From: Oasisia sp. SBJ-2009
Taxonomy: Eukaryota > Annelida > Polychaeta > Sabellida > Siboglinidae
DNA length: 64,000 bases
Assembly (NCBI GenBank): GCA_964017155.1
Contig: OZ024862.1
Span: 29,619,658 to 29,683,657, forward strand
Direction of reading: 5' to 3'
Below the pieces are notes generated by a model. The model saw only the letters and a program-made list of their open reading frames with translations, was not told where the DNA came from and did no database searches. A program made the translations under genes and the position numbers. Below, piece after piece: positions 51,401 to 54,400 of this stretch; position 1 is the stretch's first letter, and each line of letters opens with the position of its first letter.

Positions 51401-54400
51401 ACGGACGGACGGACGGACGGACGGACGGACGGACGGACTTTTTACACATTTGCAAAGTTCTATATGCATGATTTACATCAATGTTGTAATATTTGTAATA
51501 AGTAAATTATTGTTGTGACATGCATTCCACTGTGAATAAGTATTCCACATAGACATGAACACACAATATATATAACATATATATATATATATATATATAT
51601 ACACGTATATATATATATATATATATATATATATATATATATATATATATCACATTTGCAATCAATATATAATTCTCACAAAACCAGGTTTATTCTTATC
51701 ATAGGCACTTTAGAAATATAATAAAAATTCAAATAATGAAAAATTTGATAACATCGATGCCATCCACCCCTCATCAAAAAAAAAAAAATTGGAACAGCCA
51801 ATAAATTGCAAAGATACATTGATATGTGTTTCTTTAAATCGCAGAATTGCTAAAATAATTACACGGTGAATGTGCAAACATGATCTGAATTCCATCTATT
51901 GAAAAATATGGTTAGAACATATTATACATCAGTAAATTGCAACTGGTTTATCATATCAATAAATAACCATGCGTTTACAGCCACAGCTGAACATGTAAAT
52001 AAACAGCAGAATTTGTCCTCAGTGTGTATTCCCTGTGGAGTACGAAACTCATTTTTCTAACAAAATGTGTTATTCCAAATGGACTCTTCTCCTGTCCATA
52101 TCAAACTTTTTTATTATTGGAATTTTATGTAATGACAAAGTGCCTTAGTCTATGTCTGTTTGTTCCTTGACCGGGGCCAGATCTGTCCAGTGTCATCCTG
52201 TTTGGGGGAGCAATACACGGCGCCCTCCTTAGAGACAAGTAAGTGTCCACTGTGTGAATACTGACACTGGTCAAGCTAAAGCTGTTGTCAACAGCACTAA
52301 TAAAGCTGTACTCTACATCAAATCATACTTAAGAAATGAGTGTATAATTACTATAAATAAAGTTAATGCTCTTTCAAATTGTCAAATATGACACTTTCTG
52401 TGGCAAGCGTTTGTGTACATTTGAACATGGGAACATTTTGGATGGATCAAAGGAACCATGTACAACTACAAATATGAGATATTATGTTACTATTACTACT
52501 ATCTAAGTCTGTATTATACTTTTAAAAATAAAAACAATAATATAATAATAATGTCAAATAATAACTTTGAAATGACATGTAATATTATGATCTGCATGGT
52601 TTGGGCACAATGAGAAGGAAGGTTAATATGTGCTTGGTGCTGTAGGTTTGGCGACAGTGTAGGGGGAGTGTTGATATGTGCTTGGTGCTGTAGGTTTGGC
52701 GACAGTGTAGGGGGAGTGTTGATATGTGCTTGGTGCTGTAGGTTTGGCGACAGTGTAGGGGGGGGGGGGTTAATATGTGCTTGGTGCTGTAGGTTTGGCG
52801 ACAGTGTAGGGGGACGGTTGATATGTGCTTGGTGCTGTAGGTTTGGCGACAGTGTAGGGGGAGGGTTGATATGTGCTTGGTGATGTAGGTTTGGGGACAG
52901 TGTAGGGGGAGGGTTGATATGTGCTTGGTGATGTAGGTTTGGCGACAGTGTAGGGGGAGGGTTGATATGTGCTTGGTGCTGTAGGTTTGGCGACAGTGTA
53001 GGGGGATGGTTGATATGTGCTTGGTGCTGTAGGTTTGGCTACAGTGTAGGGGGAGGATTGATATGTGCTTGGTGCTGTAGGTTTGGCGACAGTGTAGGGG
53101 GAGTGTTGATATGTGCTTGGTGCTGTAGGTTTGGGGACAGTGTAGGGGGAGGGTTGATATGTGCTTGGTGCTGTAGGTCTGGGGACAGTGTAGGGGGAGT
53201 GTTGATATGTGCTTGGTGCTGTAGGTTTGGGGACAGTGTAGGGGGAGTGTTGATATGTGCTTGATGCTGTAGGTTTGGCGACAGTGTAGGGGGAGGGTTG
53301 ATATGTGCTTGGTGATGTAGGTTTGGCGACAGTGTAGGGGGGGGGGGTTAATATGTGCTTGGTGCTGTAGGTCTGGGGACAATGTAGGGGGAGGGTTGAT
53401 ATGTGCTTGGTGATGTAGGTTTGGGGACAGTGTAGGGGGAGGGTTGATATGTGCTTGGTGATGTAGGTTTGGGGACAGTGTAGGGGGAGGGTTGATATGT
53501 GCTTGGTGATGTAGGTTTGGCGGCAGTGTAGGGGGAGGGTTGATATGTGCTTGGTGATGTAGGTTTGGGGACAGTGTAGGGGGAGGGTTGATATGTGCTT
53601 GGTGATGTAGGTTTGGGGACAGTGTAGGGGGAGGGTTGATATGTGCTTGGTGATGTAGGTTTGGCGACAGTGTAGGGGGAGGGTTGATATGTGCTTGGTG
53701 CTGTAGGTTTGGGGACAGTGTAGGGGGAGGGTTGATATGTGCTTGGTGATGTAGGTTTGGCGACAGTGTAGGGGGAGGGTTGATATGTGCTTGGTGATGT
53801 AGGTTTGGGGACAGTGTAGGGGGAGGGTTGATATGTGCTTGGTGATGTAGGTTTGGCGACAGTGTAGGGGGAGGGTTGATATGTGCTTGGTGATGTAGGT
53901 TTGGGGACAGTGTAGGGGGAGGGTTGATATGTGCTTGGTGATGTAGGTTTGGCGACAGTGTAGGGGGAGGGTTGATATGTGCCCTCCTCGCCTGGCCAAC
54001 CCCCTGGATCATCCTCATTGGCTCCCTGCTGTCGACGGTTGGGGCGGGGCTACAGAGTCTCACAGGTTGGTGACCTTTGACCCAGATCATGCCGGTGTGT
54101 TTCATTGTTTCAATAACACAACAGCAAGTGGAGATATCTCAGACAGTAGATCACAGGATGAAGTTGTCCATTGCCTGGTGGCTAGTGTCAGTCATCATTA
54201 AGAAAACAGTATCTCAAGATGTATATATTTAGTTTGCACAAACTTTAACAACATTTTAGATTTTGAAAACACTGAAAAACATGTATTTCTCCCACTTGAT
54301 GCAGATAAAATATTTGTATTCTGTAATTGTATACACTGTTGGTGTTACTTGTTGATTTATTTATTGCGTTATGTACTTCTGCCACTTGATGCAGATAAAA

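What the first reader, a model, noticed from the sequence alone, without database searches (positions are those of the whole stretch)
52616..54065. A 48-bp minisatellite made of the exon 11 acceptor plus coding bases, ~28 intronic copies
Seen: every unit carries TGTAG followed by the first ~35 coding bases of KCC exon 11, and the last unit is itself the start of the exon. The intron therefore ends in about 28 consecutive TAG|GTTTGG decoys, in frame (48 = 16 codons). C-type units keep the frame open, but A-type units, including the last one, contain TGA, so any upstream acceptor would give a premature stop. Inference: acceptor choice or copy number could tune productive KCC mRNA, or the last-AG rule could depend on a distant branch point.
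Basis: partly seen in the sequence, partly recalled or inferred. Interest (0 to 1): 0.9.

Follow-up and report, generated by a model that had tools for sequence, protein, structure and literature searches.

The report
Intron ending in 27 decoy acceptors
In a worm that is probably a deep-sea tubeworm, one intron of a potassium-chloride transporter gene ends in 27 tandem copies of its own splice acceptor with the first 36 coding bases; every copy but the last would give a broken message, and splicing is predicted to find the last one from the exon body behind it, since several copies are locally identical.

Summary
The array is real. Window 52617-53982 is a 48-bp minisatellite (28.4 copies, 95% matches). 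Each unit joins the last 12 intron bases to the first 36 coding bases of a KCC (SLC12A4-7 type) exon at 53947-54065; 27 intronic units precede the genuine one. Corrections: the exon starts at 53947, and units of 51 and 50 bp break the frame, so only 12 of 27 decoys are in frame. All 27 still lead to a stop at least 124 nt before the exon's end. Decoys 7, 22 and 26 match the genuine acceptor base for base from -60 to +36, decoy 26 from -149 to +36, so the local splice signal cannot choose between them. The host is probably a vestimentiferan annelid (91% protein identity to Lamellibrachia satsuma). This is a junction-spanning minisatellite, the kind called "mirage" in amphioxus. It is not isolated: two more junctions of this gene carry one, and arrays enter the coding match at 12 of 154 sampled myosin exon edges, about 10 of them junction-spanning by inspection.

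The parts
52181..52238 (+). Upstream exon (8th of 19 mapped), ends ...GACAA|gtaagt
   Evidence: Exon model and open frame; tblastn with the L. satsuma protein
52617..53982 (+). 48-bp minisatellite, 28.4 copies by TRF; its last 36 bases are the start of the exon
   Evidence: TRF; unit map
52622..52633 (+). GTTAATATGTGC, near-match (one mismatch) to the exon's GTTGATATGTGC at 53971-53982; possible seed of the duplication, or just an old unit
   Evidence: Sequence; homology further left is not significant, 46 of 500 shuffles
52646..53946 (+). 27 intronic units, each starting at a decoy exon start (52646, 52694 ... 53899); unit 3 = 51 bp, unit 15 (53321) = 50 bp
   Evidence: Unit map; 27 of 27 lead to a stop
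53851..53898 (+). Decoy unit 26, identical to the genuine acceptor from -149 to +36
53947..54065 (+). Genuine KCC exon (9th of 19 mapped, 119 nt), donor CAG|gttggtga
47028..47223 (+). Second junction-spanning array in the gene: last bases of the exon ending 47059 plus donor, three extra donors at 47106, 47146, 47180
   Evidence: TRF; donor copies
58088..58314 (+). Third junction-spanning array: 56-bp unit with acceptor TTTATAG|GCCTCAG, three extra acceptors at 58124, 58179, 58235 before the genuine one at 58291
   Evidence: TRF; acceptor copies
48785..49224 (+). Array abutting the donor of the exon ending 48779; no coding bases repeated
   Evidence: sequence
60267..62323 (+). 29-bp array, 70.9 copies, abutting the donor of the exon ending 60265; only the genuine donor reads GGTGAGT

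Best explanation
The intron ends in 27 tandem copies of its own acceptor plus the first 36 coding bases, a junction-spanning minisatellite of the 'mirage' kind, and splicing is predicted to use only the last copy, likely because that copy alone adjoins the exon body and its downstream donor. Shown: units carry the acceptor TGTAG|G with a branch-like TTRAT 20 nt before the exon start and no AG between (10 of 28 units printed), some decoys equal the genuine site base for base over up to 185 bp, and every decoy leads to a premature stop in silico. Inferred origin: the repeated 48-bp segment is bounded by a 12-base near-match (GTTAATATGTGC in the intron, GTTGATATGTGC in the exon), so slippage or unequal exchange would duplicate it while leaving the last acceptor's surroundings unchanged, which would make growth nearly neutral. 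Inferred mechanism: exon definition (distance to the exon's donor, plus any enhancers in the remaining 83 exon bases) selects the last copy; messages from decoys would be destroyed by nonsense-mediated decay.
For: Unit map and identity; stop after 27 of 27 decoys; decoys 7, 22 and 26 without mismatch from -60 to +36; with a matrix from the gene's 16 other major-type acceptors 14 of 27 decoys score above the genuine site and 13 equal it, so site strength does not favour the last copy. The L. satsuma protein and 101 further homologues have no insert between the DK before this junction and GLQSLTG (102 of the 120 listed; the other 18 lack that exact string and were not tested). PMC9225289 (abstract, passages, one results section): under exon definition the sites closest across the exon are favoured; both introns here are over 500 nt (1708 and 579). 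In amphioxus, arrays of this kind are reported to leave normal splicing intact. At two other junction arrays of this gene the copy next to the exon body is also the one that keeps the protein frame.
Against: No RNA evidence. For 3' splice sites PMC9225289 reports an overall preference for the upstream site that long flanking introns only reduce, and recounts Reed and Maniatis finding the upstream of two competing 3' sites chosen; so distance to the donor alone may not suffice. The genuine acceptor has a poor pyrimidine tract (0.47 against 0.53-0.82 in 16 others). The acceptor matrix rests on few sites. The seed near-match could be an old unit; the ancestral intron was not available.
Confidence: 0.65

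Rival explanations
1. One reading: decoys are used at an appreciable rate, each use is a dead message, and copy number sets the productive fraction of KCC mRNA.
For: 27 of 27 decoys give a premature stop and match or beat the genuine site by a gene-own matrix, so even random choice among equals would waste most transcripts.
Against: Amphioxus cases are reported to splice normally. A heavy loss at an essential-looking transporter would be costly. No expression, allele or individual data.
Confidence: 0.17
2. Ratchet: each unit reads AG|GT, so a decoy acceptor, once used, is respliced as a donor onto the next unit, and the intron is removed stepwise without harm.
For: Every unit carries AG|GT; tandem AGGT sites in human UBC act as both donor and acceptor (PMC10809524, abstract and discussion).
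Against: TAG|GTTTGG is a weak donor: -5.3 kcal/mol for most units against -2.5 to -11.8 for the gene's major-type donors, and 159 of 1004 intronic GTs score at least as well in the gene's donor matrix; the regenerated CAA|GTTTGG is weaker still (-1.5).
Confidence: 0.05
3. Assembly artefact: the array or its length does not exist as shown.
For: Long identical arrays are easily mis-sized; no raw reads were available.
Against: Units differ in an ordered way (C-type units towards the 5' end, A-type towards the exon, two G-run units), the locus is single in the 764-Mb, 33-contig assembly, and similar arrays occur at other exons. Copy number may still be wrong.
Confidence: 0.05
4. The repeats are translated as an in-frame 16-residue repeat in some isoforms.
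For: C-type units are open in the exon's frame.
Against: 27 of 27 decoys reach a stop; a protein search with the open C-type stretch found nothing at E <= 0.001; 6 of 8 variable exon-derived columns lie at codon positions 1 or 2.
Confidence: 0.01

Closest known systems
Amphioxus 'mirages': minisatellite-like tandem duplications of exon-intron boundaries in Adh3, globin, TnC and PGBD5 genes (PMC3087553, PMC3902484: passages read; the naming paper, Canestro 2002, only as cited there, not held)
   Same: Tandem units span an exon-intron boundary, on either side of exons; units hold AG/GT signals; BflGb6 duplicates intron end plus exon start as here.
   Different: Annelid rather than lancelet; 27 decoy acceptors of 48 bp (BflGb6: 3 or 6 units of 150-160 bp); every decoy leads to a stop; length variation and normal splicing were shown there, not here.
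Polyubiquitin UBC with a tandem array of dual-specific AGGT splice sites (PMC10809524: abstract and discussion)
   Same: Tandem units with AG|GT at each boundary.
   Different: There the units are coding and in frame and splicing between them is observed; here units are intronic, stop-bearing, and the donor half is weak.
Intron gain by tandem duplication of AGGT-containing segments (PMC4974935 and PMC3443670 seen as search listings only)
   Same: Tandem duplication copies splice signals.
   Different: Here an existing intron appears to have grown; no new intron is needed to explain the protein.

Membership tests
Mirage (junction-spanning minisatellite) | Head-to-tail tandem units | tested here: met
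   TRF 28.4 copies, 95% matches
Mirage (junction-spanning minisatellite) | Unit spans an exon-intron boundary (intron and coding bases) | tested here: met
   12 intron bases plus 36 coding bases per unit; genuine exon start is the last copy
Mirage (junction-spanning minisatellite) | Length instability between alleles or tissues (reported for some amphioxus cases) | not testable with these tools
   One assembly, one locus
Mirage (junction-spanning minisatellite) | Normal splicing despite the repeats (reported in amphioxus) | not testable with these tools
   No transcripts; only the absence of an insert in 102 listed homologues
Tandem dual-specific splice sites (UBC-like) | AG|GT in each unit | tested here: met
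   All 28 copies were found by the pattern TGTAGGTYTGG
Tandem dual-specific splice sites (UBC-like) | The GT works as a donor | tested here: inconclusive
   Weak by U1 pairing and by the gene's donor matrix; no RNA
Tandem dual-specific splice sites (UBC-like) | Units stay in frame so that inclusion is harmless | tested here: not met
   27 of 27 decoys lead to a stop; units 1-15 also out of frame

The most novel reading that the evidence does not exclude
This tubeworm genome amplifies its own splice junctions wholesale: arrays enter coding sequence at 12 of 154 sampled myosin exon edges and span 3 junctions of this KCC gene. Each array is a fast-mutating, heritable count of decoy sites, and at KCC 27 stop-bearing acceptors act as a length-dependent brake on transporter output.
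Probability: 0.15. Interest if true: 0.85.

Novelty: new member of a known kind. Interest (0 to 1): 0.6.

Why it matters
It is a natural competition among 28 acceptors, three of the decoys identical to the genuine one over 96 bp and one over 185 bp, with only the last adjoining a real exon. That isolates a long-standing question: what, besides the splice-site sequence, tells the spliceosome which copy to use. It also takes junction-spanning minisatellites from amphioxus to an annelid, where a one-family sample suggests they are not rare, so they may be a general route by which introns grow and gather decoys. Gene predictors and variant callers could stumble on such loci.

Tried and rejected
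Homologous DNA elsewhere: the unit pattern has no exact match in viral contigs or genome contigs. A protein search with the open C-type stretch: 2329 candidates, none at E <= 0.001. My first thought, amphioxus, was dropped when the KCC protein matched Lamellibrachia satsuma at 91% and the next of the 120 listed at 67% or less. Homology of the left flank to the unit is not significant (46 of 500 shuffles reach the score).

Enrichment at junctions depends on the null. This gene: 5 of 7 arrays (period 20 or more) touch a junction within 6 nt; P = 0.0018 if arrays may overlap exons by at most 40 nt, P = 0.19 if placed anywhere; array edge within 10, 20, 40 nt of a junction: P = 0.11, 0.30, 0.022. 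Myosins: 23 of 47 array ends fall within 50 nt of the match edge, P = 3.4e-4 over eight 50-nt bins, but P = 0.010 when the truncation-prone outer bins are dropped. An array entering the match by at least 8 nt: 12 of 154 edges, against mean 3.7 and maximum 10 in 400 random draws from 264 kb of C9. That baseline is lenient: arrays cover 6% of that stretch but about 13-19% of bases more than 10 nt into the sampled myosin flanks. By my reading, L032 (218 nt inside the match) and L079 (match runs into the intron) are not junction cases, leaving 10; in L088 the copies have lost the AG. Match edges are not exact exon edges. A replicate with kinase family PF00069 did not complete. A loose FGxSxx pattern flagged nine homologues, some of them rows without the anchor string; the strict spacing test in the same call showed no insert in 102 of 102.

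Full report
What is there. Window 52617-53982 is one head-to-tail array, period 48, 28.4 copies, 95% matches. Cut at TGTAG|GTYTGG it gives 28 acceptor copies at 52646, 52694 ... 53947: 27 intronic units (25 of 48 bp, one of 51, one of 50) and the genuine exon start. Among the 25 full 48-bp units 38 of 48 columns never vary, and the exon's first 36 bases equal the consensus.

The gene. Nineteen exons were placed between 43762 and 63739; joined they give an open frame of 801 residues, and tblastn with the Lamellibrachia satsuma protein hits them in order, with further exons beyond the window. An earlier 749-residue version matched L. satsuma SLC12A6 at 91% identity over its whole length; the next of the 120 listed (of 4242) reach 67% or less. 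One exon of 62 residues matches PDB chains of SLC12A4-7, then NKCC-type members more weakly. The host is therefore probably a vestimentiferan annelid (inference). The assembly has 764 Mb in 33 contigs, and the 27 listed matches of the exon query all lie at this locus.

Consequences of choosing a decoy. Each decoy was joined in silico to the upstream exons: 27 of 27 reach a stop before the end of the exon, the nearest 124 nt upstream of 54065; units 1-15 are also out of frame because unit 15 is 50 bp long. By the usual 50-55 nt rule (recalled, not from a call) all would be substrates of nonsense-mediated decay. Of the 8 variable exon-derived columns 6 lie at codon positions 1 or 2, which gives no sign that the units are translated.

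Why the local signal cannot decide. Decoys 7, 22 and 26 match the genuine acceptor at every base from -60 to +36, and decoy 26 from -149 to +36. With a matrix from the gene's 16 other major-type acceptors, 14 of 27 decoys score above the genuine site (11.86) and 13 equal it; the matrix rests on few sites, and the genuine acceptor has a poor pyrimidine tract (0.47 against 0.53-0.82). In the 10 of 28 units printed, a TTRAT motif has its A 20 nt before the exon start with no AG between; one search shows the motif columns constant in the 25 full 48-bp units. What differs for the last copy is the exon after base 36 and the distance to the donor at 54065. If only the last copy is used, the selecting information must lie there or in position along the transcript. 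That only the last is used is predicted, not shown. Support: no insert in the predicted L. satsuma protein or in 101 other listed homologues (18 of 120 not testable), the exon-definition rule and the amphioxus precedent. Against: the 3' splice-site data of PMC9225289 show an upstream preference that long introns only reduce, so proximity to the donor may need help from enhancers.

Origin. GTTAATATGTGC at 52622-52633 and GTTGATATGTGC at 53971-53982 are 12 bases with one mismatch, in the register of the units. Duplication between such a pair would copy branch motif, AG and 36 coding bases together and leave the last acceptor's surroundings as before. This is inference; the left copy may simply be an old unit, and the ancestral intron is not available.

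Not alone. In the same gene the donor after 47059 has three extra copies and the acceptor at 58291 has three extra copies; two more arrays start within 6 nt of the donors at 48779 and 60265. Elsewhere, 78 myosin-head matches were listed; 77 were tested in 77 fetched stretches for arrays of period 15 or more. Of 48 merged arrays, 11 end inside the coding match within 50 nt of its edge and 12 within 50 nt outside, against 24 over the rest of the flanks; one lies 218 nt inside. Twelve of 154 edges have an array entering the match by at least 8 nt; reading, ten are junction-spanning. Six were counted for copies of the site, the genuine one included: L065 donor 7 (three of them GC), L077 donor 13, L071 donor 13, L057 acceptor 8, L056 acceptor 11, L095 acceptor 4. 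The strength of enrichment depends on the baseline (see Tried and rejected), and a second family could not be searched.

Known kind. Tandem repeats over exon-intron boundaries were named mirages in amphioxus and are reported in Adh3, globin, TnC and PGBD5 genes, on either side of exons, without disturbing normal splicing (passages). My paper searches (open-licence papers only) listed no annelid case that I could recognise from titles and abstracts, and the passages on introns and tandem repeats that I read in the Ridgeia genome paper PMC9921365 do not mention one. So the structure is a new member of a known kind, in a new phylum as far as those searches reach, with an unusually high count of stop-bearing decoys.

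Verdict.

Noticed in passing
donors at 51263, 62627, 63740; branch-like 52163-52171 and 63624-63631: Three introns of the gene start GTATCCTT, and two of them end with TTCCTTGAC or TCCTTAAC close to the acceptor: minor-spliceosome (U12-type) introns by recalled consensus.
   Followed up: partly
47620-47865 and 47930-48175: Near-perfect inverted repeat in an intron: 246-bp arms, 245 identities, around a (TA)n centre.
   Followed up: partly
60267-62323: 29-bp array of 70.9 copies starting 2 nt after an exon end; 62 TGAGTGA in the searched stretch but only the genuine donor reads GGTGAGT, so the copies carry no such decoy donor.
   Followed up: partly
L065 (C13:36828690-36829524): Myosin donor array, 53 bp x 7.4, with 43 matched coding bases per unit; three of seven donor copies read GC instead of GT.
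   Followed up: partly
L100 (C5:17714977-17715075 and 17715475-17715570): Two neighbouring matches to the same myosin segment (120-152), one with a stop: a possible duplicated exon.
   Followed up: no
58306 (exon) against 58139, 58194, 58250: In the 56-bp acceptor array the three decoy copies read GATGCTG where the genuine exon reads GATCCTG, so that exon has not been homogenised with its array (positions approximate).
   Followed up: no
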